From: a virus | Virus record (IMG/VR): IMGVR_UViG_3300042464_000712 | Coordinates: 1-31,531 of that record | DNA length: 31,531 bases | Strand: one strand, 5' to 3' | Position numbers and translations under genes: made by a program | Notes under the pieces: generated by a model | The model's input: only the letters and a program-made list of their open reading frames with translations | Databases searched by the model: none | What the model was told of the DNA's origin: nothing | In this document: positions 6,502 through 29,496 of the stretch, piece after piece | How positions within the stretch are numbered: position 1 is the stretch's first letter | Layout of the letters: every line of letters begins with the position of its first letter

Positions 6502-6849
6502 CTATCTGCTGTTCGGCCTATAGATAGCATTATTTGTTCTTTTGACAGATGATTGCTCGGCCTTCTTTTGTAGCTCATCGTGTATCGCACTAGCTTCTTT
6601 GGTCATGATAGAAACACTATTGGTTTTCTTAACCGCTGTTTCATTAACCATAAAGTTTTTGGGCTTGTTTGACACAGGAGAGCTTTTAGTTTCAATCTTA
6701 TTTTCTTCACCAGTTTTCGACTGTTTTTCTAGAACATTAGAAACCTGTTTTAGGGTTAGCTTTAATTCGTCTGCTATCTTTATAGCAGCAAAATTTTGAT
6801 AGTCTAACCACCTAATAGCATAAATTTGTGTCTTGTTTAGTCTGCTCAT
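6502..6849 (-). CDS. Small protein with N-terminal helix-turn-helix
   Basis: In this 115-residue protein, residues 1-42 (NKTQIYAIRWLDYQNF, KIADELKLTLKQVSNVL) have the spacing of a helix-turn-helix of the sigma-region-4 or MarR/LuxR kind: a helix, a turn around ADEL, and a recognition helix LKQVSNVLEKQ. The rest is Ser/Lys/Asn-rich and probably disordered. It may bind DNA as a small regulator or sigma-like accessory factor; this is inference. GGGAG lies eight bases before the ATG, and the ATG shares one base with the upstream stop (TGATG). Confidence 0.65.
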   Translation of the reverse strand: MSRLNKTQIYAIRWLDYQNFAAIKIADELKLTLKQVSNVLEKQSKTGEENKIETKSSPVSNKPKNFMVNETAVKKTNSVSIMTKEASAIHDELQKKAEQSSVKRTNNAIYRPNSR

Positions 6850-7223
6850 CAGATTGACTCCCTTTCGGCATTAATAAAATAGGCAATATTTTTGGTCTTA
6901 AGAAAATTTAGATAATGATCAAAACACTTAAAGTTAACATCCTTAAACTTTGTAGCATTTGGATTATTATCATACAGAGTATACTTCTTTTCTTCTCCGT
7001 ATAATGACAGTGGGTTATATAGTCTGCCGTCTTTAGACAACTTAATACTATACCTAACAGACGAATCATCTCTGACTGTTTTTTTAGCTAGAGTATTTTG
7101 ATTGGGCTTTTCTGTTCTAGGATTATTATTATCATCTAGAAAATCTTCAAGACCCACAACACAGTAAAATTCTGTTGTTGCAGCAGCCTTGTTGATATTT
7201 TGTTCAAAAATAAACTCCGACAT
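6849..7223 (-). CDS. Small protein, paralogue A of a flanking pair, function unknown
   Basis: The start is taken at the ATG at 7221-7223 because AAAGGAG lies seven bases before it. An upstream ATG at 7247 has no such site and would overlap the FmdB-like gene. The 124-residue product is not recognised, but it clearly resembles the product of 7594-7998: both have YxVVG/YTIVG followed by EDFLD(D/E)N and a PR, then LAK, a YSIK/YYVK strand, LYNP, and a C-terminal F..Y..FLKTK...A..E. It looks like a compact alpha/beta domain. The pair arose by duplication. Confidence 0.75.
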   Translation of the reverse strand: MSEFIFEQNINKAAATTEFYCVVGLEDFLDDNNNPRTEKPNQNTLAKKTVRDDSSVRYSIKLSKDGRLYNPLSLYGEEKKYTLYDNNPNATKFKDVNFKCFDHYLNFLKTKNIAYFINAERESI

Positions 7224-7229
7224 ACTTTT

Positions 7230-7236
7230 CTCCTTT
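7230..7236 (-). promoter_or_regulatory. Strong ribosome binding site AAAGGAG
   Basis: AAAGGAG seven bases before the ATG at 7223 fixes the start of the paralogue-A gene. Confidence 0.7.
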
Positions 7237-7594
7237 ATGTGGGCCACTTTGTTTTGGGTTGTTTTTTCATCCTAGACATACCAGAAGGTAGAGGCTTTCT
7301 TTCCGCCCCATCTTCTTTATAGTCATTGTGCTTTTTGTTTAAGTGAACCTTTTGATCATCACTAAATCTATCGCTATTTCTTTTTGCTAAATCCCCTATA
7401 GTTTTTAGTTCAGAGTCGGCTTTCTTGACAGACGCATTTAAACTTGATAGGTCGTTGTGATAGTCCCTTGATAAGCTTTTAGATCCGCAGCTTTCACAAC
7501 GCAAGTTTTTTTGCATTTTGTCATATTCTCTAATAGAACATACGACTTCCATGTGTGAAGAACACTTATCGCAAACATACGAATATTCTGGCAT
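7235..7594 (-). CDS. FmdB-type zinc-ribbon protein
   Basis: In this 119-residue protein, the first 40 residues match the FmdB-type putative regulatory zinc ribbon: MPEYSYVCDKC with C8 and C11, and LRCESCGS with C33 and C36. The rest is charged, helical and then basic, ending in KKQPKTKWPT. Members of this family are common in phages, often with no known role, and may bind nucleic acid or protein. The ATG shares one base with the upstream gene stop (TAATG), so the two are translationally coupled. It sits between two paralogous genes. Confidence 0.78.
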   Translation of the reverse strand: MPEYSYVCDKCSSHMEVVCSIREYDKMQKNLRCESCGSKSLSRDYHNDLSSLNASVKKADSELKTIGDLAKRNSDRFSDDQKVHLNKKHNDYKEDGAERKPLPSGMSRMKKQPKTKWPT

Positions 7595-7998
7595 TATGCT
7601 ATTTCCTGTTGTGCTGCCTTTAACCAGTTTAGACTTTTAGTTTTAAGGAATTCCTTGTATTTATTGAATACGCTCTCTGTAACTTCTGTTAATATCCATT
7701 CGTTTTTATAAGTTTTATGTAGGTGAGAGTATTCGTGTTTATTATTATCTTGTACTGAATGTATCTCAATAGGATTATAAAGAATCTTAAGAGGATTAGT
7801 TTTTACATAATATCGATATTGAAAATTTTTATTAGTTAATTGCCTAGGTTTTTTATTTTGAATAGCTTTTGCTAGTACAAACCCAGTTTCATTATTGATT
7901 CTAGGATCACCATTTTCATCTAAAAAATCTTCATTTCCGACAATAGTATAAAACTTGTTAGCTATAGCACTATTATTTATGACAAAATTATCTGGCAT
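7594..7998 (-). CDS. Small protein, paralogue B of a flanking pair, function unknown
   Basis: This 134-residue protein shares a pattern with the product of 6849-7223: FYTIVGNEDFLDENGDPR (about 16-33), LAKAIQNK, a YRYYVK strand, LYNP and KEFLKTKSLNWLKAAQQE near the end. No catalytic motif is visible. It is the first gene after the two large Cys-rich proteins and after an inverted-repeat region, so it may head the small-gene transcript. Confidence 0.75.
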   Translation of the reverse strand: MPDNFVINNSAIANKFYTIVGNEDFLDENGDPRINNETGFVLAKAIQNKKPRQLTNKNFQYRYYVKTNPLKILYNPIEIHSVQDNNKHEYSHLHKTYKNEWILTEVTESVFNKYKEFLKTKSLNWLKAAQQEIA

Positions 7999-8010
7999 TG
8001 ATTGGTACCT

Positions 8011-8097
8011 GTTCTAGGAAAATGCTTTCTGTATAGTAGTTCTTTCCCTAGAACTTGCCAACCCACTTTTTTATAGAGTTTCTACTACGGAAGCATT
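8011..8097. repeat. Nested inverted repeats between the large-protein gene and the small-gene operon
   Basis: GTTCTAGG at 8011-8018 pairs with CCTAGAAC at 8047-8054. In addition AATGCTT at 8021-8027 pairs with AAGCATT at 8091-8097, and TAGTAG at 8034-8039 with CTACTA at 8082-8087. The two pairings overlap, so they would be alternative RNA folds. The outer arm includes the end of the 8085-9959 gene. No T-run typical of a rho-independent terminator follows. It may be an RNA-processing, attenuation or protein-binding site; that role is inference. Confidence 0.5.
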
Positions 8098-9959
8098 GTA
8101 TACCATTGACCACCTAACGTATTATAGCTGGATGTTGGCGTTGGAGTTGCTGTGGCGTTTGGCGTTGAGCTTACGCTAACTGTGGGAGTAGGTGTAGCGG
8201 TTGACGTTGCTGTAACAGTAGAAGTATTAGTTGGCGTAGCGGTTGGAGTTTTTGTTGGTGTGGAAGTTGGAGTATTCGTTATGGTACAAGTTGGTGATGG
8301 GTCGATAGAACACTGAATATCAGCACAAGTTTTTCCTAGGTTAAATCCTTGTGCGGTGTCCGATGTGTCGGCGCTTATCCAATTTTCTAGAGTGCCTTCA
8401 CTACATCCAGTGACATAAAAGTTGTCATTGCATTCAGATACATAACCAGAGCACCAAGCTCCGTGATTTTCTACACATTTGCATTCGGTGGAATCAAATA
8501 ATTTACCCCCTCTATTTGCGCAATATTCTGTGACATTAGTTGGAGGATCGCATACGCAATCACAATTATCATTATATGATTTTAGACTATCGAAATTAGA
8601 TAACCCTTCGCACGGAGGATTAATATCAGGGTCGCATTCGCAACTTTGTAGAGCTGTATCGTATCTCTTTTTTGGGTTTGAACATACGCAATCGCAAAAA
8701 TTTTCTGCGCTTAATGCTACTCCTAAATTACCACCAGCTACCGTTCTAATGCCATCGTATCCTCGATCCAAACAATATATTTGCCCATTAGCCTCATCAT
8801 AGTCTCCAGCAAAACAGAATTTGTCACAATATTCACAACTAGGATTAAAAGGAGCGTTGTTTTCTGTGAATGTTATATCGAAAGATATTCCAGTCAAGGG
8901 GCTATAGTTATATCTTGGGTTAACTTGTTCTATAATTGGTACTGGATCACCATCACCATCTAGCAAAGTTGTTATAGAGACATTAGAAACATCATCTCCC
9001 CAAGTATTTGATATAGAAAAAGTATATCTACCTAATTGATCGGGCCCAGAAGCGCCGGTAATAGTGACTAAATGAGTATTTCCGGGTTCATATGCGGGAT
9101 TAAATTGACGTATATTATTGGTTAAGGTTTCTTGATTCATTGTGGCAGTATCTTCCCAAGATATCGAACCGTTAGAAGCATCCGTTAAAACCAGTCTTGA
9201 AGTGTATAAAGAACCAAAAGATAAAGACACTGGACGACCGCTATTTATTTCGTTCAAAATATTTTCATTACTTAATAATCCTGATCGAAAATTTGGACAA
9301 GAAATATTTGTAAGTCTAATATATCCTTTTATACAACTATTGGTGCCACAAAGACTATCATTATCGACCAAAGCATCCTGTTGATTACCTATACATCTAT
9401 TTAAGTTGCTTAGTTCGCTAACTGGAATCGAAATGTTATCAAATAATAATTTTCCTACTTTTCTATAGGCTTTGCTAACCTCTCTTTCTTCTTCGTCGGC
9501 TTGTTGTGACTCTCTAAACAAACTAGTAGGAAAGCCTTCAGGATAATTAAGAGGCTCAGAAGACGGTATACAGTTAATTAAACGATTGATATCTGCAGAA
9601 AAATTTAATTGACTTGTTATACATAATGCTAGGCTAGATATGCTACACCACCCTAAGTTTCCTTGACTAAAAGTTGGAGCATCAATAGTTCCTTGATAAG
9701 TAAAATTATTATTTTGATTTGATTTTTTAACATAAAAGTTGTTGATTCTTACGTCTTCACTAGCTATTGCAGAGTGGGGGGCTGTATTTTTTTCTTGAAT
9801 GTAAAGCCTTACCGGCTTATCAAAGTCTAAAGATCCGAATGTTGTATTAATAGTAAAATTTGGCGGACCTGGCTGTCTGAGAAAGTCTTTAGACGGAGTA
9901 TTCCTAAAAGGCTTTATATCATTATTTAACTTATTAGGATCAATAATAAATTCTGCCAT
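8085..9959 (-). CDS. Large Cys-rich, Thr/Pro-linker protein with papain/calpain-like protease domain
   Basis: This 624-residue protein is probably a virion or surface protein. Residues about 95-335 carry a cysteine-peptidase pattern: SQGNLGWCS with Q99 and C105 (spacing of six, as in papain and calpain), GNTHLVTITG with H296, and SISNTWGDD with N318 and W320, corresponding to oxyanion Gln, nucleophile Cys, His and Asn of clan CA. Residues 375-557 are Cys-rich, with two CDCVC units (422-426 and 466-470). Residues 557-610 are a Thr/Pro/Ser linker, and the last 15 residues end in GGQWYTMLP. There is no signal peptide or membrane segment. The start has an AT-rich leader without a Shine-Dalgarno site. 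The protease fold is inferred from motifs only; the segment could also be an inactive homologue. Confidence 0.8.
   Translation of the reverse strand: MAEFIIDPNKLNNDIKPFRNTPSKDFLRQPGPPNFTINTTFGSLDFDKPVRLYIQEKNTAPHSAIASEDVRINNFYVKKSNQNNNFTYQGTIDAPTFSQGNLGWCSISSLALCITSQLNFSADINRLINCIPSSEPLNYPEGFPTSLFRESQQADEEEREVSKAYRKVGKLLFDNISIPVSELSNLNRCIGNQQDALVDNDSLCGTNSCIKGYIRLTNISCPNFRSGLLSNENILNEINSGRPVSLSFGSLYTSRLVLTDASNGSISWEDTATMNQETLTNNIRQFNPAYEPGNTHLVTITGASGPDQLGRYTFSISNTWGDDVSNVSITTLLDGDGDPVPIIEQVNPRYNYSPLTGISFDITFTENNAPFNPSCEYCDKFCFAGDYDEANGQIYCLDRGYDGIRTVAGGNLGVALSAENFCDCVCSNPKKRYDTALQSCECDPDINPPCEGLSNFDSLKSYNDNCDCVCDPPTNVTEYCANRGGKLFDSTECKCVENHGAWCSGYVSECNDNFYVTGCSEGTLENWISADTSDTAQGFNLGKTCADIQCSIDPSPTCTITNTPTSTPTKTPTATPTNTSTVTATSTATPTPTVSVSSTPNATATPTPTSSYNTLGGQWYTMLP
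8130..8291 (-). repeat. Coding repeat: Thr/Pro/Ser linker of the protease-like protein
   Basis: This encodes residues 557-610, a run of TPT, TAT and TST units with almost no charged residues. It separates the Cys-rich part from the conserved GQWY tail and is probably extended and disordered. Confidence 0.8.
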
Positions 9960-9997
9960 AAAAATTTTGAATTTCTATATTTTAATAGGTAATTATG

Positions 9998-12025
9998 CTA
10001 TGGTATATAATGATACCACTGTCCAGACCCTGTAGTATAGCTTGATGATGGAGTGGGGGTTGCCGTAGCGGTACTGGTAGAGGTTGGGGTGGGAGTTGGT
10101 GTGGGAGTTAAGCCCCTAGTGGAAGTCCTAGTCGCTGTGGGAGTTCTTGTGGGGGTTCTTGTTCGTGTTGGGGTTTTTGATTGAGTAGGGGTGGGGCAGG
10201 GGCACGATAGCTCATTCAAGCCAGCTGCTGAATACTCATTGCCTAACGACGCCATTTGCATTGCGCATGTAAATCCAGCATAAAATTCTGGTGCTCCGGG
10301 CTTCATATTTTTACTACCGTCTGGACCAACATTAAACCAAGTATTTACATACTCAAAATAATAACCATTTACACAACAAGATCCATTAAGAGGAGCAGGC
10401 AAACAATATGCGCCTGGGCACATATCACTACACTTAGGATCAGAACAGATCGCTATTAATGACCTACAATTAAGATCACAAGACTTACTAGCTGGCGAAT
10501 ATTTACCGTTAGATTGTAAACAGCAATCAAGATCTACTAAGTTTTGAACACCCGGCACTTTTCGTCTAGAACATTCGGCTATGGTTTTTGGGCCTATATT
10601 ATGTGGGCCATCGCTCCAGCATACCCAACAATCATACTTGATTGCCGCTGTTGGAGTTGGTGTGGGAGTAGCCGTAGCACTAGATGTTAAGGTCGGAGTA
10701 GGGGTTCTGGTTCTAGTAAGCGTTCTAGTTGGAGTTAAAGTTTTAGTTGGTGTTCGTGTTTGTGTAGGAGTAGCAGTAGTAGTAGAAGTGGGAGTAGGAG
10801 TTTTAGTTGTAGTACGTGTTGGAGTAGGGGTTCTAGTTTGAGTACGTGTTTGAGTAGGGGTTCTGGTTGTAGTACGAGTTGGCGTTGGAGTTTTGGTTGT
10901 GGTGCGTGTGGGAGTAGGGCTTGGTCCATTAATAACGACACTAGTCAAAGTTGTTGGTGTAAAGTTAAGATTAATAGGATCCCCATCTTTTGCACCAAAC
11001 ATTGAAGCGCCATTCAAAACTATCGGAGAGTTTACTGTAACCGAAAATGGCGGATTAGGATCTCCTGATGTTAGGGTATACTTAAAAATAAGGCTTTTCC
11101 CATTATTCTGTTTAGAATCATAAAAGGCTTGACGCTCATTATTAGCGGTTAAAATGGAGACATCTTGATTCAAGCCTTGAGAAGATGCCGAATAAATAGC
11201 CTCAATAAATACTATATTGAGATATGGTACGCTTGGTGTTCCTTGAATCTCTATTGACTTCTCAAAATCTACCCTAAAAAAAATGGTGTTTTGATCCATG
11301 AAGCCTGGAGCGGGTTGACTAATTTGTACAGGACTTAATGGGGATGGACAAGTACAACTTAATTTTTGCAGAGAATCGTCATATGCCGAATCCGAGGGGC
11401 TTATAGGCGATCCGTATCTATTCCCCACTGGGCCGTCACATCGAGCATGTTTTACAAATGCTGCTAGTGTGGGACTACCCAATTGTTTGCGTTGTGCATT
11501 TATTTGCAAATATGATCCCCAACTACCTTCCTGGCAACAAGAATCATTAGTAGCCATAGGATCACAATATGCTCCCAGACAACCCAAAACACAATGTGAG
11601 TTTCGACACCTACTCTCATCAGTTCTACAAGAACCACAATCCCGTGACTGGTCACAGCAACTTAGTTGCCAGTGATATCGTGTCAAACGCCTAGCCGGGG
11701 TGTCAATACAGTATGCAGAATGTTGAGGCTCATTGTATAGTAATGGTCTGTCAGGATGGCTGGCACCGCCGCCAAATAGAACTTGGTCCTCACATCTCCA
11801 GCAATCAACACAGCTTAATTCTGCAAGACTACTCACACCCCAATTGGCTATACAATTTTGTGGTGTATAGCTATTAAAGCTCCATGGCTCATCTCCTGGC
11901 TCTAAACCACATTTCCAGCACTCATAATTAGAAGGCGCGCTTTGAATCTCAGAATCTGTCGCGCTTAAAGAACTACACACTAAAGGCTTTGGAATAAACT
12001 GATCATTATTATCATTATTAGACAT
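9998..12025 (-). CDS. Large modular Cys-rich protein with Thr/Pro linkers, probable virion/surface protein
   Basis: In this 675-residue protein, three CWxC units start near residues 36, 75 and 466. Two copies of a longer Cys module (about 136-228 and 522-613) share C...GAYC, a CC pair, a GNxY segment and an ending L..LSC(T/P)CP(S/T)P. Between them lies a beta-rich segment (about 240-365: [31 protein letters not shown]-like strands) resembling bacterial Ig-like surface domains. Thr/Pro/Arg linkers run 369-459 and 611-660. The C-terminus SGQWYHYIP matches that of the next gene. No signal peptide or membrane helix is seen. No Shine-Dalgarno site precedes the ATG. It may be a tail-fibre or decoration protein, but no standard phage structural domain is recognised. 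Confidence 0.8.
10040..10195 (-). repeat. Coding repeat: second Thr/Pro/Arg linker
   Basis: This encodes about residues 611-662 of the 675-residue protein. It changes from an Arg-containing TPTRT pattern to an uncharged TPTPT/TAT pattern just before the C-terminal tail. Confidence 0.8.
10646..10921 (-). repeat. Coding repeat: main Thr/Pro linker with regular Arg/Lys
   Basis: This encodes about residues 369-460, built on [10 protein letters not shown] and TQTRT units with a basic residue about every four positions. Long plus-strand ORFs across this stretch (Val/Gly-rich) are only its antisense image. Confidence 0.85.
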
Positions 12026-12053
12026 GGTATGTAGTAGTGTCTCATTAGTGTTT

Positions 12054-12093
12054 AAATGGCGATTAATAACTAATTAATACACTACAGCCATTT
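12054..12093. repeat. Inverted repeat between the HNH nuclease and the large Cys-rich gene
   Basis: AAATGGC at 12054-12060 pairs with GCCATTT at 12087-12093, with a 26-base AT-rich spacer that itself contains ATTAAT repeats. It spans the HNH stop codon and lies just upstream of the 675-residue protein gene. It could be a terminator-like or processing hairpin; a long loop and no T-run make it weak. Confidence 0.35.
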
Positions 12094-12671
12094 TATTTTA
12101 CATATATTTGCCATTCTTTTGGTATTGATAGGGCTGAGTTTGATATGTGTAAAATATACTCATTAATATAGAAAAATTTATAGCTTTTATTTGGGGCAGA
12201 CGGGGTGATTTTAAGATTCATATTGGCCTGTTGAGGCGTTTTGTTGGACTTTTTTCTATTACAGGCTACGCAAGCTGTAACTATATTCGTCCAGCATGTT
12301 GGGCTGCCGTGTTTTCTATCCCATACTGATTTCGGAATAACATGATCGTATGTTAAATTATTGATCTCTTTTTGAGAATGGCAATATTGACATGTATAAT
12401 TATCTCTAATAAATAAATTTTTACGAGAGAAATTTACAGTCTGATGATGGAATTTAAAATATCTATTAGTTTTTACTACTGCTGGTATCTGATATTGCTT
12501 ACCATTAGCTCCAGCTATAAAGTCATCCTTATAGAAATCTATAATTTCAATAGACATAGGAGAGCGATGGTCGTATTGAACCGACCAGATCATCGCCCTC
12601 TTCCAGCTAATGATACCAAGAGGAGAATAGTCAGCATTAAGAACTAAGCACTTACTGTTGTGATCTTTCAT
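12093..12671 (-). CDS. HNH endonuclease
   Basis: This 192-residue protein has a full HNH core: CQYC (C94, C97), YDHVIPKS with D109 and H110, the Asn of TNIVTAC (N129), and CVACNRKKSNKT with C134 and C137. The N-terminal 80 residues (CLVLNADYSPLGIISWKRA) match stand-alone HNH proteins found in phages and bacteria. It cuts DNA with a metal ion. It could be a homing-type or genome-processing nuclease. The gene overlaps the PhoH-like gene by 20 bases, suggesting it is stably integrated in the operon and not a recent invader. Confidence 0.88.
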   Translation of the reverse strand: MKDHNSKCLVLNADYSPLGIISWKRAMIWSVQYDHRSPMSIEIIDFYKDDFIAGANGKQYQIPAVVKTNRYFKFHHQTVNFSRKNLFIRDNYTCQYCHSQKEINNLTYDHVIPKSVWDRKHGSPTCWTNIVTACVACNRKKSNKTPQQANMNLKITPSAPNKSYKFFYINEYILHISNSALSIPKEWQIYVK

Positions 12672-18040: not shown

Positions 18041-18853
18041 CTATAGCAAAGAATCTAGGGTTTGTTTGTAGATTTGGTCATATTCCATTTTCATATGCTC
18101 TTTAAAGTCTTTGGTGTTATGCTTCTGAAGAAACGCCCCATATAAATCAGCGTTATTATGAGAAGCCAATTGTTGATGCTGCGAGCAGTGGAGATTATAT
18201 TTAATTTCAAACCCATTAATCATGCAGTAGATAAAAAGGGCTCTCTCGTGAACGTAAGAACCTAGAGGATCACTCTTAAAGAGTTTTGCCATAGGGGTGA
18301 ACCAGTCCACAAAAGAGTCTAGAGTCTTAGAGCTTAGTAATATGTTGGTAGATATTGGCCAATACATACTGTGTTTTAATTGGGTCTCTAATAAGTTTTC
18401 TAAGTCGATATTATGGATTTTTTTAAGAGCAATTTCTAACCATGGTGTGCTTTTATGAAAAACATAATGGTGAACTAAGGTATGAGCATATCCTACTACG
18501 CTAGTGTTGAGTGGACAATAGCACAGATTAGATGAGTGAAAATTATCAAAGATATCAAGATCATATTCTAATAAGCAAATATTATTATTTTGATAAAGAC
18601 CGTTTTTTACTACAGCATACCAAGCAGTAAAGCTGCATAGATAAGGATATTCTTCTAAATTATATATTAAATTTCGACAAATAATAGTTTCATAATCTAA
18701 GAGATTAAGCTTATTGGTTTTTCCATTTCCAACAAATAAGAACTTATAATTAGGAAGAGCCCCAAAAATATTTCTATCTATTTGTTGATTAATAATGTCT
18801 TGGTCATGACAAACTATAAAATAATCTATCTTATTACTACCAATAAGATCCAT
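18041..18853 (-). CDS. Glycosyltransferase-like protein, family uncertain
   Basis: The start is placed at the ATG at 18851-18853, which follows AGGAAT by nine bases. An upstream ATG at 18913 would overlap the previous gene by 77 bases with no such site. The 270-residue product starts with a strand YFIVCHDQDIIN, has LFVGNG, then CLLEYDLDIFDN, which resembles a GT-A metal-binding DxD region. Later parts are Tyr/His-rich. No family was confirmed. It is the last of four genes (21690-18041) that overlap or abut and probably act on the same sugar or lipid. Confidence 0.6.
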   Translation of the reverse strand: MDLIGSNKIDYFIVCHDQDIINQQIDRNIFGALPNYKFLFVGNGKTNKLNLLDYETIICRNLIYNLEEYPYLCSFTAWYAVVKNGLYQNNNICLLEYDLDIFDNFHSSNLCYCPLNTSVVGYAHTLVHHYVFHKSTPWLEIALKKIHNIDLENLLETQLKHSMYWPISTNILLSSKTLDSFVDWFTPMAKLFKSDPLGSYVHERALFIYCMINGFEIKYNLHCSQHQQLASHNNADLYGAFLQKHNTKDFKEHMKMEYDQIYKQTLDSLL

Positions 18854-19682
18854 TTTCAATATTCCTATATGACTCTGGTGTTTCTTCTGGGAGTGGCCTA
18901 GTCCAGTATTCATTAATAAAGTTTTTAGAGCCGTGTCTATTATATTGCGCCCATCTATTTCCCATTATGCCAAATAATAATTGGAGTGCTCCGCCCATAT
19001 GAATAGCTGTTTTATTCAAATGTTTTTTAATGTGGGCCCCTAACGGAAGACCAAATGCCCCACACCCAATGAGAGCAACATCAAAATCTATATTATTAAT
19101 TTCATCTTGCATTGTATATAAACTATCAAACCAGTCATAATTCATATTATTGCCAATATTTTGAATGGCCTTCATTGTTATTAATTCAAATTCTGGTAAA
19201 ATATTAGTGCCAACAAATAAGTGTTCTCTATTCTTATAGTTCTGCTCTATGCTTTTTTGAAATGGATGTATAACTAATACTTTTTTGTCTTTTAGTGCTT
19301 CGCTCCAAGGGTTTTGAGGAAAATGATATGATTCTAATCCCCATAAATAAAAGGGTATAGCATTAGGACAATAGTTAGCAATAAGACGACTATAATTAGG
19401 AGTACAACCAATAAACGCCACGAGATCTAATGACTTAATACAGTCGCTATATTTTTTACTAAAAGCATAAAGATAATCCTGATCATTAGGATAAATCCCA
19501 GCAGGAGAACGAGAGTTTTGCACCATCTGATTGGTACAGGCTTTATTGTCTAGCAACATAGTACATACAATATCACACTCTGTTACGCCCGATCTGCCAA
19601 CAAAAAATATTTCTTTTTTCTCAAGACGTTCTTTAATTAAATTATTGCCCTCTATTTCTCTTAAAATATTGATAGTAGTCAT
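18837..19682 (-). CDS. Possible GT-D-fold glycosyltransferase
   Basis: In this 281-residue protein, an N-terminal FFVGRSGVTECDIV segment (26-39) and a late segment with GCGAFGLPLGAHI followed by AIHMGGALQLLFG (about 207-235) resemble GT-D-fold glycosyltransferase domains, which carry an R.G..E segment near the start and a Gly-rich 'GA.G..la..i...gk.aih.Gg' segment near the end. If right, it would transfer a sugar during glycan assembly. Its ATG overlaps the upstream stop by ATGA. The assignment is from memory of motifs only. Confidence 0.6.
   Translation of the reverse strand: MTTINILREIEGNNLIKERLEKKEIFFVGRSGVTECDIVCTMLLDNKACTNQMVQNSRSPAGIYPNDQDYLYAFSKKYSDCIKSLDLVAFIGCTPNYSRLIANYCPNAIPFYLWGLESYHFPQNPWSEALKDKKVLVIHPFQKSIEQNYKNREHLFVGTNILPEFELITMKAIQNIGNNMNYDWFDSLYTMQDEINNIDFDVALIGCGAFGLPLGAHIKKHLNKTAIHMGGALQLLFGIMGNRWAQYNRHGSKNFINEYWTRPLPEETPESYRNIENGSYW
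18861..18866 (-). promoter_or_regulatory. Ribosome binding site AGGAAT deciding the start
   Basis: It lies about seven bases before the ATG at 18853, inside the end of the preceding gene, and supports the downstream start. Confidence 0.5.
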
Positions 19683-21007
19683 AATATGGTTTTATTTTGA
19701 TTGTTTATTAAAAGAGTTATCCAATTAAAGAACTCATCCTGTACATTCATAATACTTGTTGGTTGAGAGGGGTCAATTGGTATTTCTATAACATTTGTTG
19801 GCTTAGTTAGCTTGCCAAAAAAAGCCTCTTTACAGTCATATGTAGAAAGCAATCTTCCCATAGAATAAAAATCATCCGGGAATACTCTTCCTTTAGCCAT
19901 AGTAAATAATGGTATATTATACAAGCATGGTATATTACATCCAGAACAATTAGTTCCAACAACGCCCATACAATAGTTTTGATAAAAACAAGCCTGTTTT
20001 TCAACTGAATATGCTATTAATACTTCTTCTCCATCAACAGATTTAGCCATATTAATTTCACTATCTGTACATGCTACAATAATAGGATATAGTCCTCTTT
20101 TTTTAATTAGAGCACAAACATCTTTTAATTGTGCCGCAGAAGCCAAACCCGCCCTACGAGTATTATCTGAGTGTATTAAGACCGCAATATATTTTTTATT
20201 TAAAACTATACCATTAGAATTTTTAAGTAAGATTTTATTGTTTTGAAATAAATCTTTAATAATGTCTGTACCATAGATACTTGGAAATGTATTTTTAGAA
20301 ATGCATCTGGTTAATGATTGATATTTATCAAGTTCGATATTTATACTATTATTGAGGATTACTGATTTTGAGATATGGCGTATATTATGCATCCCATGGT
20401 TCCATGTGAATATTGGGGACCAATCAACATACCATATTTCATCAAGACCCATAATTTTATTAAAAGGCTTGACAAAAAATTTGGTCTTTTGATCTAATAT
20501 TAAAATGTTATAGGTATCTTTAGATATTTCTTTTTGTGTATGTTCTTTAATTCTTACTATCGCTCTTAAGCAGTCTTGGAAGTGCTCCGTGCAGATAGCA
20601 TTAGCGATATAGATTGTTTGTGGCTGTTTATTGGATAGTTTTATTTTTTCTAATCTAGTAATATCGTGATTTGTTTTCATGCTCTCTATACTATGACGAA
20701 AAAACTCACGAGCTTTAATTCTAACTTCTGATACATAGTCCCCTTTAGCACTTGGGGCGAGTTGTTCGTTTCCTGTCCAGGCCCCTTCTGAATTAATAGT
20801 TCCAATATATCTATTAAGGGACCACTTATAATTACCACAGCCATGTCTATTAAAATTGTCTGTAAAATCCCAAAATAGATTTTCTAAAAAGCAATGTACG
20901 GAATCACAATGAACGCACTTATAAGAGAATTCTGATCCTATAAATAGAATTTTTTGATGATCTTCCTTTTGGCAATTAGGGCATTTAAAGGTGGTTAAAG
21001 TTAACAT
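19679..21007 (-). CDS. Zinc-ribbon plus putative GT-B-like protein, function uncertain
   Basis: This 442-residue protein has an N-terminal zinc ribbon with CPNC (9-12) and CVHC (31-34). The rest resembles a two-domain GT-B fold: ILILDQKTKFFVKPFNKIMGLDEIW and, in the second half, AVLIHSDNTRRAGLASAAQLKDVCALIKKR with a following IIVACTDSE, a GT9/fucosyltransferase-like arrangement in which a donor-binding half follows a short strand. A CSGCNIPC segment and NIPLFTM follow. It could transfer a sugar. The zinc ribbon at the start is unusual for a glycosyltransferase. Confidence 0.55.
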   Translation of the reverse strand: MLTLTTFKCPNCQKEDHQKILFIGSEFSYKCVHCDSVHCFLENLFWDFTDNFNRHGCGNYKWSLNRYIGTINSEGAWTGNEQLAPSAKGDYVSEVRIKAREFFRHSIESMKTNHDITRLEKIKLSNKQPQTIYIANAICTEHFQDCLRAIVRIKEHTQKEISKDTYNILILDQKTKFFVKPFNKIMGLDEIWYVDWSPIFTWNHGMHNIRHISKSVILNNSINIELDKYQSLTRCISKNTFPSIYGTDIIKDLFQNNKILLKNSNGIVLNKKYIAVLIHSDNTRRAGLASAAQLKDVCALIKKRGLYPIIVACTDSEINMAKSVDGEEVLIAYSVEKQACFYQNYCMGVVGTNCSGCNIPCLYNIPLFTMAKGRVFPDDFYSMGRLLSTYDCKEAFFGKLTKPTNVIEIPIDPSQPTSIMNVQDEFFNWITLLINNQNKTIL

Positions 21008-21690
21008 TTATTTTTAGCAGCAAACTCTAAACTTTTAATAGTGTCTGATAAGTTTTGTGTTGAGGAGTTATTATTGGTGTCTATAAAGTATTGAGCAATA
21101 GCTTCTAGAGTATTTTTTGATAAGTGCCAAGGGCTAGATATGGACTTTATATTATTAGTATTTTCAGTTATACAAAGAGACTCTTCTGATATAATTGTGT
21201 TTAAATCAATATATTGGGTCTTATTGTTTATTAGAGAAGGCTGAACCACCTCATCAAAATACATTTTTTTTCTCTCTTGAATTCTAGATCTCATGGATGT
21301 AGCACCTATATTGTGGTACATTTCTGATCTATGCCAAGCCGCAGGAGTATCAAAAATCATCATATTCACATTTAGAGAAGATAAATTAAGTAGAATTTCT
21401 CTCCATATTTTAAATAGAATAGAAGTTTTTTCGCATAATACTGCCGAGTTTGACCAAGCTGTTAGTACTATTATGTTGGATGGTCTTAAAGCAGAGAATA
21501 GGTAGGTGGTTCCGCACCTTCCCCATTTAACATCAAAAAAGTGATAGTTTTTATGGTTTTTCTTGAAAATCTCTTTTATCTCTAGAAGATAACAATATCC
21601 AACACCCAGAGTAAAATTACCTTCTAGTCCAACAACCTCATCCCAGTCTGAAGATGTTTTAAATTCATTGGTTAAGCTGTCATATTTCAT
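21001..21690 (-). CDS. Possible SGNH-type hydrolase/acyl-modifying protein
   Basis: This 229-residue protein is weakly reminiscent of SGNH hydrolases: a mid strand VLTAWSNSA, IFDTPAAWH and a C-terminal SPWHLSKNTLEAIAQYF that fits the 'DxxH' catalytic block position, though Asp is replaced by Pro-Trp. The GDS-like nucleophile is not clear (GNFTLGVGY at about 24-32 is a candidate). It may add or remove acyl groups on a sugar. It overlaps the next gene. Low confidence in function, higher that it is a real gene. Confidence 0.5.
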   Translation of the reverse strand: MKYDSLTNEFKTSSDWDEVVGLEGNFTLGVGYCYLLEIKEIFKKNHKNYHFFDVKWGRCGTTYLFSALRPSNIIVLTAWSNSAVLCEKTSILFKIWREILLNLSSLNVNMMIFDTPAAWHRSEMYHNIGATSMRSRIQERKKMYFDEVVQPSLINNKTQYIDLNTIISEESLCITENTNNIKSISSPWHLSKNTLEAIAQYFIDTNNNSSTQNLSDTIKSLEFAAKNKC

Positions 21691-21776
21691 GTGATATTCT
21701 CTATGTAGTTTTTAATATAGTGATTATTAAAATCGGACGATAAAGTTACGAAACTTTCCATTTTTACCTCTTTTTC

Positions 21777-22355
21777 TTAAATATGTACATACCAGCAAGA
21801 TATTGATTTTTCAAAAACTTGGGCAGAATGACCGAAAATCTCTTCAACCGCAGTTGAAACCCCTTTTTCTTGATAATCATGTCCTGAGACGATTCCTCCT
21901 TTTTTAATTTTAGGCAACCATGCTTCTATATCTTTTTTTACATAATCGTACCAGTGGTTTCCGTCTATAAAAACAAAATCTAATGATTCGTTTTCAAACA
22001 ATGATGCGGCAGCAGAACTATCACTTTTTATAAGTTCAACAAAATGATTACATCCAACTTTATTTAATCTATTGACAACGAAATTATACTTGTATTCACC
22101 AAGTTTTTTTAATCTATCTTCGTCAGACAAACCTTTTGTGTCATACAAAGATTCAATTTCTTCTTTGCCTGCCCAGGTGTCAAATAAATCTACTCCGTAA
22201 ATTTTTACACCATCTTTGCTTTTGATTTTTTGCGCTAAAAAACTAATTGACAAGCCAAAAAACACACCAACTTCAACAAAAGTTTTAAAATTTTGTTTTG
22301 ATATGAATTCGTAAAAGCTAGAATAGTTGAAATAATTAGGTTCATTTTTTACCAT
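21777..22355 (-). CDS. SAM-dependent methyltransferase (Methyltransf_24-like)
   Basis: The start is at the ATG at 22353-22355 because AGAGG (22364-22368) lies eight bases before it; the GTG nine bases upstream is less likely. The 192-residue product has motif I VEVGVFFGLS, an acidic strand-end VYGVDLF-like region (IYGVDLFDTW) and FVFIDGNHWYDYVKKD followed by KKGGIVSGHDY, all typical of the small class I methyltransferases of phage sugar clusters. The target could be a sugar or amino acid. Confidence 0.85.
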   Translation of the reverse strand: MVKNEPNYFNYSSFYEFISKQNFKTFVEVGVFFGLSISFLAQKIKSKDGVKIYGVDLFDTWAGKEEIESLYDTKGLSDEDRLKKLGEYKYNFVVNRLNKVGCNHFVELIKSDSSAAASLFENESLDFVFIDGNHWYDYVKKDIEAWLPKIKKGGIVSGHDYQEKGVSTAVEEIFGHSAQVFEKSISCWYVHI

Positions 22356-22363
22356 TGGCAACA

Positions 22364-22368
22364 CCTCT
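22364..22368 (-). promoter_or_regulatory. Ribosome binding site AGAGG deciding the start
   Basis: It lies eight bases before the ATG at 22355 and argues for that ATG over the GTG at 22364. Confidence 0.6.
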
Positions 22369-22404
22369 TTTCTTGATTTATATATTAAGCCTACTTTTAT
22401 TATC

Positions 22405-23235
22405 CTATACTTCCTTGTAGTTTTTAATCACACCGTTACAGAAATCATTTAAATGCGTATTTATATCAAGAACTTTAGAGCCTCCGCCATAATGAACCCA
22501 ATAAAAATCTTCCGGTGCGGAGTTTGGGTCATGTGGATTTTTCAAATAAAATAGGAGAGAAGAGTCAATACCTTTAACTATCAGATTACTATTTTTGGAT
22601 GGAAGATATTCGGTCTTTATTAGTTTTGATAATGCAAAAGCCAATAATTCATCATATGAATTCCTATCCATTTGCTTTTCGTAGTTAATTAGCGATTGAG
22701 ATTTTAGAGCATATACTACTCCCAAACACCATTTTTTTTGTTTTTCAACAGACCATTCTATAAGTTCTTCAATAGTAAAACCCCAAACTTTGTAAAAGTC
22801 ATTTGGATCCCATTGTTTTGTGCTTTTTATAATTTTTTCTTTAGCATCGAAGGAGCCACCGTCTCCGACCAACATTTCCGATTCTCCCAACATATCTTTT
22901 ACAGCTGAGTTAAAATCAACTTTGCCAAACAAATACATGTCGGAATCAACCCAGCAAATAATTTCTTCTGGATGTTCTTTTGCAACTTCAATGCACTTCG
23001 TAAATTTTTGCAAGTTTGAACTTGTTCTCCAAACTTTTACTCCTATATTATTCAAAAAATCCAAGTATTTAGATTCTTGTATATCTGATATTACATAGAT
23101 ATCTTGTGGAAGCAGCCCGCCATTTTTAATCAGTGAAACAGCGTGGGCCGCCGCAAACATCGGATAACGATATTGTCTTTCAAAGGGCGGTTCTTGGATC
23201 CACCCGGTCCATCTTGCAATCATCACTATTTTCAT
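22405..23235 (-). CDS. GT-A-type glycosyltransferase
   Basis: This 276-residue protein contains a WVDSDMYLF segment (95-103) carrying the D97-S98-D99 metal-binding motif of GT-A enzymes, preceded by YVISDI and followed by LVGDGGSFDAKE. The start KIVMIARWTGW is a beta strand. It transfers a sugar from a nucleotide donor. A clean AAGGAATAAAT precedes its ATG. It lies among methyltransferases and glycosyltransferases of the cassette. Confidence 0.75.
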   Translation of the reverse strand: MKIVMIARWTGWIQEPPFERQYRYPMFAAAHAVSLIKNGGLLPQDIYVISDIQESKYLDFLNNIGVKVWRTSSNLQKFTKCIEVAKEHPEEIICWVDSDMYLFGKVDFNSAVKDMLGESEMLVGDGGSFDAKEKIIKSTKQWDPNDFYKVWGFTIEELIEWSVEKQKKWCLGVVYALKSQSLINYEKQMDRNSYDELLAFALSKLIKTEYLPSKNSNLIVKGIDSSLLFYLKNPHDPNSAPEDFYWVHYGGGSKVLDINTHLNDFCNGVIKNYKEV

Positions 23236-23244
23236 ATTTATTCC

Positions 23245-23358
23245 TTAATTAAACCTATCAATTAGCCATTTTTCAGACCTACTATTACTTGAGGGACCAA
23301 TTAAATTACACCTAACTAAACTCTTTTTTCCAGCACATATCTGTGTATTAGTTCTCAT
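23245..23358 (-). pseudogene. Short ORF, possible C-terminal remnant of an SDR (RmlD-like) gene
   Basis: In this 37-residue frame, SLVRCNLIGP followed by SEKWLIDRF resembles the C-terminal region of dTDP-4-dehydrorhamnose reductase-type SDRs (xxRxSxIGP...WL). There is no upstream Rossmann part, so it looks like the tail of a deleted gene whose first ATG (23358) overlaps the end of the preceding glycosyltransferase gene. It could also be a chance small ORF. Confidence 0.35.
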
Positions 23359-23977
23359 AAGAACGATAAGGGCTTTGAGTATATTTTTTGTTTTGTCTCC
23401 AGTCAACATGTATTAAATCTATATGTTCAAACAAATTAACGATAACAACGCCAGATTTTTCGGCATTTTTTCTAAAATGATTTTCGCAATGAAGAACTCC
23501 CAAGTTCCAATCTTTGTTAAAATCATAACTTATTTTTTTGTACACCCAAGCATCTTGTGAACAAATAGTAGATATGTGTTTTTTATTGTCTGGGTTGTGA
23601 TCTGCTGCTGATGGCACTATATTACCATCTTTGGTCAAATCTTTTCTTGTCAATAAGTACAGTGTTTCTTCCCATTCGTTTATTTTATCCAAAAAACACA
23701 ATGATTCATCAAAATAAACATCAGAATTAGATAGTATTTTTATATCTTCTGGATATTCTTTATCAGCATAGTCCATCCACATTTTATAAGAAAGTCTTGT
23801 TTGTATTGGAACAACAATCAACTTTTTATTGAAAATTGTGTCAAATTCGCAATTATCAGTAAATAGAACTAGTTTGTCTATTCTTTCATTAGAAAGGTTT
23901 TGATATAAACAGTAAAGATTGTAAGTTAGAATTTCGGGTGTGGCTTTGAACCACTGGGTGAATAGTATTTTATTCAT
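23348..23977 (-). CDS. Putative GT-A glycosyltransferase
   Basis: The start is at the ATG at 23975-23977 with GAGG (23983-23986) five bases before it; an upstream ATG at 23992 has none. The 209-residue product starts with KILFTQWF and has LFTDNCEFD and ILSNSDVYFDESL (about 81-93), a metal-binding DxD-like NSDVYFD. Later CSQDAWVYKK and WNLGVLHCEN are found in related polysaccharide enzymes. Its start sits on the remains of a broken methyltransferase gene. Confidence 0.68.
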   Translation of the reverse strand: MNKILFTQWFKATPEILTYNLYCLYQNLSNERIDKLVLFTDNCEFDTIFNKKLIVVPIQTRLSYKMWMDYADKEYPEDIKILSNSDVYFDESLCFLDKINEWEETLYLLTRKDLTKDGNIVPSAADHNPDNKKHISTICSQDAWVYKKISYDFNKDWNLGVLHCENHFRKNAEKSGVVIVNLFEHIDLIHVDWRQNKKYTQSPYRSYEN

Positions 23978-24103
23978 TAAGTCCTCGTGCATACAACTAT
24001 GTCAGCAGGTTCGGGGATGGTTTCTTTTCCGGGCATTCCTGGGTCGTACTCGCATATAGGGAACGGCTTTTCTAACCATTTCTATATTCTGTGTGTTGCT
24101 CAT
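23977..24103 (-). pseudogene. Remnant of a methyltransferase gene, frameshifted and truncated
   Basis: Reading the minus strand from the ATG at 24103 gives MSNTQNIE. After a one-base shift near 24080 the frame continues as WLEKPFPICEYDPGMPGK, then EPADIVVCT, and stops at 23977. The second part closely resembles phage methyltransferases with 'CEYDPxxPGK...EPADLVVCTDVLEH'. The rest (DVLEH and everything downstream) is missing. Thus a one-base insertion plus a C-terminal deletion has killed the gene. Recognition is from pattern memory; a database search would settle it. Confidence 0.55.
23983..23986 (-). promoter_or_regulatory. Ribosome binding site GAGG
   Basis: GAGG five bases before the ATG at 23977 decides that start. 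It lies inside the broken methyltransferase frame, so gene debris is reused as a translation leader. Confidence 0.6.
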
Positions 24104-24183
24104 GCTTACTCTCTATAAAATTCAGATGTAGATAAACCACGTTTCACATCTACTCCTTTGACTTTGGTCTAATTTAAATTTTT

Positions 24184-24816
24184 TCACAATAATCTGCGCA
24201 TCAATTCTAAATCCTCTAGTGTATCTAGTTGAAAACTTCTATATATAGGCATATTTACTATGCCCATTTTCCCGCTATATCTCAAACCGGATTTTATTAA
24301 GCATTCTCTTTTAGTTATATAAATAGCACCATTTTCTACCCATTTTGCCTCCACATCTTGTCTCATTGGACGAGAAGTTGTGTCCCAATTGTCTGGACTT
24401 GTATTTAAATCCCACCTAGGATTCCAGTGTTCCTCATATGCACTAAAAATTGAATCATATTCGTTTATCATATCTAAACCACGATTAATATCATCTGGCA
24501 AAATTAATGGAGATGTTGGCTGAATAAAAACCAAGATGTCAAAATCTTGAAGACTAGCAAAGTGCAACAATGCTTCTTCGCTTTTGGATTTGTCTCCTGA
24601 AATATTTTCTGGTCGTTTAACTACATTAGATCCTAATTGCATGGCAACGCTAGCAATTTTATCGCAATTAGTGCTAACCCATACATCATTGGCTTTGGAT
24701 GCTTTGGCTGCGTCTATTGTATACTGGATTAAAGGCTTGCCATTAATATCAATGATATTTTTACCTGGTATGCCTTTGCTTCCTCCTCTAGCTAATATAA
24801 GTGTTTTTATATTCAT
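24184..24816 (-). CDS. neuA: CMP-nonulosonate (acylneuraminate) cytidylyltransferase
   Basis: This 210-residue enzyme would activate a sialic-type acid with CTP. It has the diagnostic nucleotide-binding ARGGSKGIPGKN (9-20), then NGKPLIQYTIDAA, VSTNCDKIA, RPENISGDKSKSEEAL and QPTSPLI, all conserved in the NeuA family. The C-terminal WVENGAIYI and FQLDTLEDLEL are also typical. It is slightly short but complete. It may act on Neu5Ac, legionaminic or pseudaminic acid; sequence alone does not decide. It lies downstream of the NeuB-like and pyruvyl-transferase genes, forming a pathway. Confidence 0.87.
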   Translation of the reverse strand: MNIKTLILARGGSKGIPGKNIIDINGKPLIQYTIDAAKASKANDVWVSTNCDKIASVAMQLGSNVVKRPENISGDKSKSEEALLHFASLQDFDILVFIQPTSPLILPDDINRGLDMINEYDSIFSAYEEHWNPRWDLNTSPDNWDTTSRPMRQDVEAKWVENGAIYITKRECLIKSGLRYSGKMGIVNMPIYRSFQLDTLEDLELMRRLL

Positions 24817-24873
24817 AATGTTTTATTTTATTTCTTTTACTCCCCAAATGTGTAGTACTTTTTTCATTTATTT

Positions 24874-25908
24874 TTAAGCCACTTTATATTTTTTAAATAT
24901 ACTTGTATAACCAGATAAAGACTGCTTGCTTAAAATCTGGCATGTTTTTATTATGTTTTCACGCACGCTTTCGTTATTTTCTAAATAGTATTTAGTTAAA
25001 TTATAAATTTCGTTAATTTGTTCATCTAATAATGGAAATGTAAAAACGACAGGGTTTTTATACTCTAGTATTTTTTGGATGTGCATAGTTTTATCACTAT
25101 TACTTTCAAAAAATATACAAGGAGTTCCATTGAGAGATGCCATTATTGATGGATGAAATCGTCCAGAAATATAAACCTGAGCCATTTGTAGTTCTTTCAT
25201 TCCCTGGTCTATATCACATTCTTTCGGTATTAATTCAAAGCCATGATCTTTAGCCAATTGTTCCATCCAATAATCTCCACCGCAGTTTTGCACTAATTTT
25301 ACTTTTGCTAGTCCAGAAATCTTATCTATTAATTTTAAATATGATAATTTTTTATTTTCTATTTGATCATGATTAGGAGGAGATGATCCCCCGCCCAGCA
25401 AAATATAATCTCCTGTTTTTATTCTGTGAGATTGCCAAGTAAACAACGCATCCGGGATATATGAATAGTCTAATTTGCTATCAATTAAATAACCCGAAAT
25501 CGGATCTCTAATCACCAATTCACAACACTTAGACCAAGCTTTAAGTGCCCTATTATACGTTTCGTTATCAAAAGGAGTCTTTGGGCATTTTGAAATCATT
25601 GCATTGACATATAAACATTTTTTGTTTATTTTGCCACAATATTCAATAACCATTAGATGTTTATCAAAATCATTCCTAATAGGAGATCTAAATATTGGAC
25701 TTCCTTCTCCATTAATTATTACTATGTCACATTCTTTTATATTTTTTTCTATTTTTGTAAAATCAGTTTTTATCAGTTCATTATTGCCAATCTTTAAAAT
25801 TTTATCGGGTTTTAAAGCAGATTGTATTATTTGTAACAATGCTTTTGGAGTGGATCGACACCCCCAATTAAGCTGGTCTACATTATACCCTATATATAAA
25901 ATTTTCAT
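24874..25908 (-). CDS. Polysaccharide pyruvyl transferase-like protein
   Basis: In this 344-residue protein, the start (KILYIGYNVDQLNWGCRST) and VIINGEGSP (about 64-72), then ILLGGGSSPPN and the C-terminal SGRFHPSIMASLNGTP, match the polysaccharide pyruvyl-transferase (CsaB/WcaK) family, a GT-B-like fold. It may add pyruvyl groups from PEP to sugars, or transfer glycosyl groups, as this family has both kinds. Its ATG overlaps the neuB-like stop by ATGA. Confidence 0.82.
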   Translation of the reverse strand: MKILYIGYNVDQLNWGCRSTPKALLQIIQSALKPDKILKIGNNELIKTDFTKIEKNIKECDIVIINGEGSPIFRSPIRNDFDKHLMVIEYCGKINKKCLYVNAMISKCPKTPFDNETYNRALKAWSKCCELVIRDPISGYLIDSKLDYSYIPDALFTWQSHRIKTGDYILLGGGSSPPNHDQIENKKLSYLKLIDKISGLAKVKLVQNCGGDYWMEQLAKDHGFELIPKECDIDQGMKELQMAQVYISGRFHPSIMASLNGTPCIFFESNSDKTMHIQKILEYKNPVVFTFPLLDEQINEIYNLTKYYLENNESVRENIIKTCQILSKQSLSGYTSIFKKYKVA

Positions 25909-26729
25909 TTTCTTAAACTACCCCTCTTTATTTTTTCATTTTCAAATAATATTCTTGGACCAATAGGATATTTTGTAGAATTTTCTATATCCCTAATGCC
26001 TTTTACTAACTTAAATACACCAGCAGGCTCCAAACTACTTAAATGGTCACTACCCCACATATTATGATTCAATGTAATGTGCCTCTCGATCCATTCTGCT
26101 CCTATTGCTACGGCAGCAAAAGTAGAAACTAATCCATATTCATGGCCACTATAACCTATTTCTTTATTTTTCCATTTATTTTTAAGCCATTTGATATAGT
26201 TTAAGTTTATTTCTTCTACCGGACAAGGATATGTACTATTAGTATGCATTATAATGTCTGGATTGCATTCGTTTATACATCTACTTATTTCTTCTTCAGT
26301 GCTCATGCCCGTAGAGATTATAAGTGTTTTGAATTTATTTCTAACATATTTACACAAATCTAAGTCTGTGATAGAAGCAGATGCTATCTTAGTAATGTCT
26401 GAGTATTTGCTCATGATTTCAGCGCTGGGTTTGTCCCATACACTAGCAAAAAAAATAATATTTTTATTGTCAGCGTATTCTTTAATTTCTTTAATTTGTG
26501 CTTCTTCAAACTCTATCTTTTTTTTGTAGTCTAGATAAGACATGTCTCCCCAAGTAGTAGATCTAATTTTATTTTTTTGATTTTCTGGAACACAAAGCTC
26601 TGGAGTTCGTTTTTGAATTTTTACAAAATCACACCCAGCAATAGACGCTATGTCTATTAATTGTTTGCATATATTAGCATCGCCATTATGATTAATGCCT
26701 ATCTCGGCTATGATTTTAGTTTTAAACAA
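25905..26729 (-). CDS. neuB: Sialic-acid-type (nonulosonate) synthase, lacking the SAF domain
   Basis: This 274-residue TIM-barrel protein would condense PEP with a six-carbon sugar such as ManNAc or its 2,4-diacetamido relatives. It has AEIGINHNGD (8-17), FVKIQ with K37, FFASVWD, ASAS, LIISTGMS, HTNSTYPCP, GYSGHE (192-197), ERHITL with H217, and SDHLSSLEP (227-235). Family members are about 340-350 residues, with a C-terminal SAF (antifreeze-like) domain; this one stops at the point where it would begin. The start is a TTG (26727-26729), as an in-frame stop lies just upstream and no ATG fits. It might act with altered specificity or be weakened. Confidence 0.87.
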   Translation of the reverse strand: MFKTKIIAEIGINHNGDANICKQLIDIASIAGCDFVKIQKRTPELCVPENQKNKIRSTTWGDMSYLDYKKKIEFEEAQIKEIKEYADNKNIIFFASVWDKPSAEIMSKYSDITKIASASITDLDLCKYVRNKFKTLIISTGMSTEEEISRCINECNPDIIMHTNSTYPCPVEEINLNYIKWLKNKWKNKEIGYSGHEYGLVSTFAAVAIGAEWIERHITLNHNMWGSDHLSSLEPAGVFKLVKGIRDIENSTKYPIGPRILFENEKIKRGSLRK

Positions 26730-27009: not shown

Positions 27010-27029
27010 GTGTTTAATTCCTTATTATT

Positions 27030-27859: not shown

Positions 27860-27892
27860 TACAACATTTCGCAATTATCAACAAATAGTACT

Positions 27893-29454: not shown

Positions 29455-29496
29455 ATTCATTTCCTTTAAGAAATCTTCTATCGTTCCAAGAACTCA

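What the first reader, a model, noticed from the sequence alone, without database searches (positions are those of the whole stretch)
8085..9959. Complete Cys-His-Asn protease set in a Cys-rich, Thr/Pro-linker phage protein
Q99, C105, H296 and N318 with flanking SQGNLGWC, NTHLVTITG and ISNTWGDD match clan CA (papain/calpain) catalysis, with the Q-to-C spacing of six and a Trp after the Asn as in calpain. A protease domain fused to a long Thr/Pro linker and a Cys-rich region is unusual for a phage. It may process virion proteins, digest host surface proteins or act on host glycoproteins.
Basis: partly seen in the sequence, partly recalled or inferred. Interest (0 to 1): 0.8.

Follow-up and report, generated by a model that had tools for sequence, protein, structure and literature searches.

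The report
Stalked papain-like protease in lake phage
An uncultivated large phage carries an extra two-gene insert, one gene of which appears to join a papain-type protein-cutting domain to a long Thr/Pro stalk ending in a short shared tag, as if phages of this group could mount different enzymes or binders on their surface; the tag and the insert are clear, while the enzyme's fold and its place in the particle are not yet shown.

Summary
The ORF (minus strand, 8085-9959, 624 aa) and all four residues are as described. The Q-G-x-x-G-x-C / H / N-[ST]-W-G set in order and spacing occurred in 0 of 200,000 shuffles. Scanning 84,980 genomes for QGN[hydrophobic]GWC DNA recovered a Bdellovibrionota family of papain-like (C1) proteases with exactly this motif at the catalytic Cys. 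P0001's His-Asn block, not used in that search, aligns to them by hhalign (P=0.0018). Support is motif-level: no Pfam C1 or C2 hit, C39_2 only at E=0.0027 below cutoff, both structure models useless (pLDDT 34), and the His-Asn block also resembles an Ig strand pair. So: probably papain-like rather than calpain.

The protein is half of a two-gene insert absent from all 63 relatives with this junction readable. Both genes end in a Thr/Pro stalk plus SSYxTxxGQWYxxxP; the same tag occurs in a related phage beside terminase and portal genes. Best reading: an accessory, surface-displayed papain-like peptidase anchored by its C-terminal tag; display and substrate are inferred. The phage lineage also carries a separate conserved papain-like gene that had no annotation in the libraries searched.

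The parts
8085..9959 (-). P0001, 624 aa: papain-like domain + Cys-rich region + Thr/Pro stalk + C-terminal tag
8850..9707 (-). Protease-like domain, residues ~85-370
   Evidence: motifs; PF13529 E=0.0027 below cutoff on residues ~85-365; hhalign to Bdellovibrionota C1-like family
9645..9665 (-). QGNLGWC: predicted oxyanion-hole Gln99 and nucleophile Cys105
   Evidence: same motif at catalytic Cys of papain-like proteins L204, L217, L218, L269, L274, L306
9216..9260 (-). ILNEINSGRPVSLSF: third block, helix + strand preceding the His as in papain-like proteins
   Evidence: similar block in 13 of 34 Bdellovibrionota members, e.g. IGAQLAKGKPVGVSY; pattern chosen after seeing the sequence
8997..9074 (-). 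HLVTITG...FSISNTWG: predicted catalytic His296 and Asn318
   Evidence: hhalign P=0.0018 against the family
8286..8837 (-). Cys-rich region, residues 375-558, 22 Cys incl. two CDCVC clusters; no Pfam match
8133..8285 (-). Thr/Pro-rich stalk, residues ~559-609
   Evidence: sequence; 12-nt-period repeats
8088..8132 (-). C-terminal tag SSYNTLGGQWYTMLP
   Evidence: shared with the neighbour and with L031
9998..12025 (-). Partner protein, 675 aa: two homologous Cys-rich domains (37 Cys), Thr/Pro stalks, same tag
10001..10045 (-). C-terminal tag [15 protein letters not shown] of the partner
7999..12092 (.). Two-gene insertion between HNH gene (12093-12671) and g7594 (7594-7998); junction is -96 to +78 nt in 63 relatives, 4083 nt here

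Best explanation
P0001 is an accessory papain-like (clan CA-type) cysteine peptidase carried by a large uncultivated phage. Shown: the ordered Q-C-H-N motif set, its match to a papain-like bacterial family, the Cys-rich region, the Thr/Pro stalk, a C-terminal tag shared with the neighbour gene and with a related phage, and the two-gene insertion. Inferred: Cys105 attacks the peptide bond with His296 and Asn318 as partners and Gln99 in the oxyanion hole; the protein has no evident signal peptide, so it leaves the cell with the particle or on lysis; the tag docks on the virion (or on a common partner) and the stalk holds the disulfide-rich, enzymatic head away from it; there it trims a protein on the host surface to aid adsorption or entry. 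The partner 675-aa protein is probably a binding module mounted by the same tag.
For: Motif set absent from 200,000 shuffles. Genome-wide motif scan recovers papain-like proteases with the motif at the catalytic Cys; two score above the Pfam C1 cutoff. His-Asn block, not used in that scan, aligns by hhalign P=0.0018; against the deeper 34-member family P=0.0073, score among the lineage's real papain-like proteins, with 2 of 917 other queries as high. Weak Pfam C39_2 match over the Gln-Cys half (E=0.0027). 28 non-catalytic Cys, an even number. Shared tag in two adjacent genes and in L031, 4294-4494, beside ERCC4-type nuclease, terminase and portal genes of the same lineage, terminase 72-80% identical. 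Thr/Pro-stalk proteins recur in relatives, some ~5 kb from terminase and some with FGE-sulfatase, DUF285 or IgGFc-binding domains. Insert absent from 63 of 63 relatives.
Against: No Pfam C1 or C2 match; the C39_2 match is below its cutoff and falls to E=0.15 on a shorter fragment. No homologue of P0001 other than the same virus, so conservation of the four residues cannot be tested. Structure models failed; fold search on the second gave only unrelated short matches. The His-Asn block also fits an Ig I-set pattern. P0001 lies among DNA-metabolism genes, not structural genes, and virion display has no direct evidence. The deeper plain HMM does not single P0001 out (rank 33).
Confidence: 0.5

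Rival explanations
1. Papain-like and displayed, but not a protease: a degenerate or repurposed papain-like fold used as a binding module.
For: The 539-aa Cys-rich papain-like paralogue in a relative (L184:9978-11594:-) has SGT where the core family has GDC, i.e. no catalytic Cys, so the lineage does keep apparently inactive copies. Fast divergence: no homologue found.
Against: P0001 keeps all four residues; a dead copy would not be expected to.
Confidence: 0.17
2. Papain-fold peptidoglycan or peptide amidase (CHAP or NlpC/P60-like tail lysin) rather than a protein-cutting enzyme.
For: Papain-fold enzymes known in phages are mostly such lysins (general knowledge).
Against: No CHAP or NlpC/P60 match in Pfam or PHROGs. 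N-[ST]-W-G after the His block is a C1/C2-type feature.
Confidence: 0.08
3. Not papain-like: the His-Asn block is part of an Ig-like domain and QGNLGWC is coincidental; the protein is a multi-domain adhesin on a stalk.
For: ITGASGPDQLGRYTFSISNTWGDDVSNVSIT fits the I-set pattern (L.I....D..G.Y.F...N..G); weak phmmer matches to myomesin and DSCAM Ig domains, E 0.3-1. Ig-like domains are common in phage virion proteins (general knowledge).
Against: No I-set match in the window. Does not explain QGNLGWC at the right distance, the PVSLSF block, or Gly at His+6. The Ig Cys is Phe and the D-x-G has one extra residue.
Confidence: 0.13
4. Active papain-like enzyme that works inside the cell or during assembly (prohead or virion protein maturation), the stalk being incidental.
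For: Sits among DNA-metabolism genes; no evident signal peptide (sequence).
Against: Accessory insertion missing from all 63 relatives, so not needed for assembly; Cys-rich region and stalk fit an extracellular place; the lineage already has a conserved papain-like gene.
Confidence: 0.08

Closest known systems
Bdellovibrionota papain-like proteases with QGNxGWC (L204, L217, L218 Bdellovibrio bacteriovorus kdesi, L269, L274, L306), PF00112-related
   Same: Identical QGN[LIV]GWC at the catalytic Cys; H-x-x-x-I-x-G; N-[ST]-W-G; similar Cys-Asn distance; PV-S block
   Different: 16-23% identity in the A1 alignment; family has RNSWG-x-x-C and hydrophobic N-termini, no Thr/Pro stalk or Cys-rich C-terminus
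Peptidase family C1 (papain, cathepsins; PF00112)
   Same: Order and spacing of Gln, Cys, His, Asn; HxVxIxG; N-[ST]-WG
   Different: No profile match; Ser in place of Trp after Cys; fold not shown
Peptidase family C2 (calpain; PF00648)
   Same: QGxLGxC and N-x-WG; His-Asn distance 22 (calpain ~24, from memory)
   Different: No profile match; no calpain accessory domains
Peptidase_C39_2 (PF13529)
   Same: Weak match across the Gln-Cys half, E=0.0027
   Different: Below curated cutoff; C39 uses Asp as third residue (from memory), here Asn
Conserved papain-like gene of this phage lineage (e.g. L136:14653-15591:-)
   Same: Cys, His, QNSWG set; same phage group
   Different: hhalign shows no relation to P0001 (P=0.34); Gln to Cys spacing five; no stalk, tag or Cys-rich region; core rather than accessory
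Tail-associated phage lysins (CHAP, NlpC/P60)
   Same: Cys-His papain-fold enzymes mounted on virions
   Different: No match; different motif after the His

Membership tests
Peptidase C1 (papain) | Ordered Gln-Cys-His-Asn with Gln at Cys-6 | tested here: met
   Q99, C105, H296, N318
Peptidase C1 (papain) | N-S/T-W-G after the catalytic Asn | tested here: met
   N318-T-W-G
Peptidase C1 (papain) | Significant match to PF00112 | tested here: not met
   No match
Peptidase C1 (papain) | Papain fold with residues in one pocket | tested here: inconclusive
   pLDDT 34, no usable model
Peptidase C1 (papain) | Conservation of the four residues among homologues | not testable with these tools
   Only the same virus found
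Peptidase C1 (papain) | Thiol-dependent proteolysis | not testable with these tools
   needs bench work
Bdellovibrionota QGNxGWC C1-like family | QGN-x-GWC at catalytic Cys | tested here: met
Bdellovibrionota QGNxGWC C1-like family | Significant full-length profile match | tested here: not met
   HMM rank 33 of ~3000, 3.9 bits; only the His-Asn block aligns by hhalign
Peptidase C2 (calpain) | Match to PF00648 | tested here: not met
Peptidase C39_2 | PF13529 match above cutoff | tested here: not met
   18.7 bits vs cutoff 24
Ig I-set domain | Match to PF07679 | tested here: not met

The most novel reading that the evidence does not exclude
This phage lineage uses a plug-in display system: a short C-terminal docking tag (SSYxTxxGQWYxxxP) after a Thr/Pro stalk lets accessory heads be mounted on the particle, and here one head is a papain-type protease acting on host surface proteins.
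Probability: 0.25. Interest if true: 0.75.

Novelty: new variant of a known kind. Interest (0 to 1): 0.52.

Why it matters
If right, phages can mount a papain-type protease on a stalk, a way of attacking host surface proteins that differs from the polysaccharide and peptidoglycan enzymes usually found on virions. The shared tag gives a direct test for which proteins are displayed and how accessory modules are swapped. It also points to a conserved papain-like gene in a widespread group of large phages that had no annotation in the libraries searched.

Tried and rejected
AlphaFold on residues 58-370 alone and with six Bdellovibrionota relatives: pLDDT 34 both times; Foldseek on the second gave only short spurious pyruvate carboxylase matches. 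tblastn against 50,697 phages: nothing meaningful for P0001, its partner or the tag. PHROGs: only a match to the Thr/Pro stalk. Direct relation of P0001 to the lineage's conserved papain-like protein: no support by hhalign. Relation of P0001's Cys-rich region to the partner's, or of the partner's to the L184 insert: none. T4-type late promoter TATAAATA: no enrichment and none near the cassette. Sigma-70 and terminator scans: no excess. Flanking repeats marking the insertion boundary: none convincing. Literature searches found no matching system. The motif regexes were written after seeing the sequence, so their zero counts overstate significance.

Full report
What is there. The window is a 31.5-kb fragment of an uncultivated phage. 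The ORF is on the minus strand, 8085-9959, 624 aa. Layout: residues 1-84 without a match; 85-370 protease-like; 375-558 with 22 Cys, including two CDCVC clusters; ~559-609 Thr/Pro stalk; 610-624 SSYNTLGGQWYTMLP. The N-terminus (MAEFIIDPNKLNNDI) does not look like a signal peptide (read directly from the sequence).

Is the motif chance? In 200,000 shuffles of the protein, the ordered set QG..G.C, His and N[ST]WG with spacing limits did not occur; H + N[ST]WG alone occurred in 46 shuffles of residues 1-372. These patterns were written after seeing the sequence, so independent evidence matters more.

Independent evidence. Among the ~29 open frames of 120 aa or more bearing the motif, seven from Bdellovibrionaceae and Bacteriovoracaceae carry it where a papain catalytic Cys would be (DQGNIGWCYANVAADL); one (L247) is partly masked. 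Five of the other six end in RNSWG and the sixth (L217) has RNSHG at that place. Two score above the Pfam C1 cutoff. The family is widespread: 105 of 192 genomes drawn from that phylum have a match. Comparing P0001 residues 58-370, as a single sequence, with this family by hhalign aligned the His-Asn block, which played no part in the search, at P=0.0018. Against a deeper 34-member alignment the P-value is 0.0073 and the score falls among those of the lineage's own papain-like proteins; 2 of 917 other queries (one real ORF, one shuffle) score as high. A plain HMM of the same family does not single P0001 out. A third block, ILNEINSGRPVSLSF, resembles the family's IGAQLAKGKPVGVSY-type block that precedes the His. 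Pfam C39_2 matches the Gln-Cys half at E=0.0027, below cutoff. Pfam C1 and C2 give no match. I therefore call it papain-like by motif, not a member of C1.

A rival for the His-Asn block. The same stretch fits an Ig I-set strand pair, with weak matches to myomesin and DSCAM. Pfam I-set does not match, and an Ig reading leaves QGNLGWC unexplained, but only a structure can settle it. Both AlphaFold runs failed, pLDDT 34.

Context. UvsX relatives define a group of large phages on contigs up to 197 kb. No isolate matches closely: the best isolate match to the recombinase is about 30% identical and to the terminase about 24%. The nearest relative, G001 (56 kb; UvsX 99% identical), is syntenic with the window from the dNMP kinase to gene 17534, without the two genes. 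In 63 of 63 relatives where the junction can be read, HNH and the next conserved gene are adjacent (-96 to +78 nt); only two contigs of the same virus have the 4.1-kb insert (identity 99.97-100% over the shared DNA). The insert has 37% and 43% GC against 34% overall.

The tag. The partner gene (9998-12025) has two homologous Cys-rich domains (E=1e-9), Thr/Pro stalks and the tag [15 protein letters not shown]. Both tags match one DNA pattern that never appears in shuffles of the window. In 2.9 million viral contigs the pattern found one further true case, L031...[18 protein letters not shown], preceded by a Thr/Pro repeat and followed by an ERCC4-type nuclease, terminase and portal (these three names are read from the sequences, not from a profile search). 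That terminase is 72-80% identical to those of four members of this phage group, with a fifth matching in two pieces at 68-76%, so L031 belongs to the same group and carries a tagged protein next to packaging genes. The pattern is absent from 17 other records of the group. Thr/Pro-stalk proteins without this tag are common in the group, some ~5 kb from terminase, with FGE-sulfatase, DUF285 or IgGFc-binding domains.

Mechanism. The most economical reading is a displayed accessory: tag docks, stalk extends, head acts outside the cell where disulfides form. Catalysis by Cys105-His296 follows from established papain chemistry. Display, substrate and timing are inferred. I give about 0.5 to an active, displayed papain-like peptidase, 0.17 to an inactive papain-like head, 0.13 to a non-papain adhesin, and the rest to lysin or assembly roles.

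A side finding. The group has a conserved ~309-aa papain-like gene (ERQTTGDC...SH, WAHAMAW, QNSWGKWNDGG), found in 27 ORFs including the nearest relative, with no Pfam family above cutoff and no informative PHROG; its profile meets cathepsins only at E=0.06 or worse, but it aligns to the Bdellovibrionota family at P=2e-5. In the window's own virus it is probably beyond the window's end, past a glycan-gene island (inferred from synteny). P0001 is not a recent copy of it.

Noticed in passing
L136:14653-15591:-, L089:2323-3252:+, L184:12756-13676:- and others (27 ORFs): Conserved papain-like protein (~309 aa), not annotated by Pfam or PHROGs, across this phage group, ~7 kb upstream of UvsX; Gln, Cys, His and Asn nearly invariant.
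   Followed up: partly
L184:9978-11594:-: 539-aa Cys-rich elaborated version of that papain-like protein, close to it in the same genome, with the catalytic Cys replaced (SGT for GDC): apparent inactive paralogue.
   Followed up: partly
L132:15914-17623:-; L141:13861-18408:+; L195:18785-19999:+: Thr/Pro-stalk proteins of related phages bearing IgGFc-binding, DUF285 and FGE-sulfatase domains.
   Followed up: partly
window 18041-31102: Glycan island with NeuB-like, CMP-sugar synthetase-like, epimerase, methyltransferase and glycosyltransferase-like genes, placed where G004 also has sugar-type genes and G001 has none. Functions read from sequence, not searched.
   Followed up: no
window 6849-7247 and 7594-7998: Two neighbouring small genes look like paralogues (YCVVGLEDFLDDNNNPR / YTIVGNEDFLDENGDPR), conserved in the group, function unknown.
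   Followed up: no
genomes of the phylum of L218: Papain-like family with QGNxGWC in 105 of 192 genomes, up to ten matches in one genome: an expansion in the Bdellovibrio phylum.
   Followed up: partly
window ~8010-8055: 12-nt near-perfect inverted repeat (GTTCTAGGGAAA / TTTTCCTAGAAC) just downstream of P0001, at the edge of the insert.
   Followed up: no
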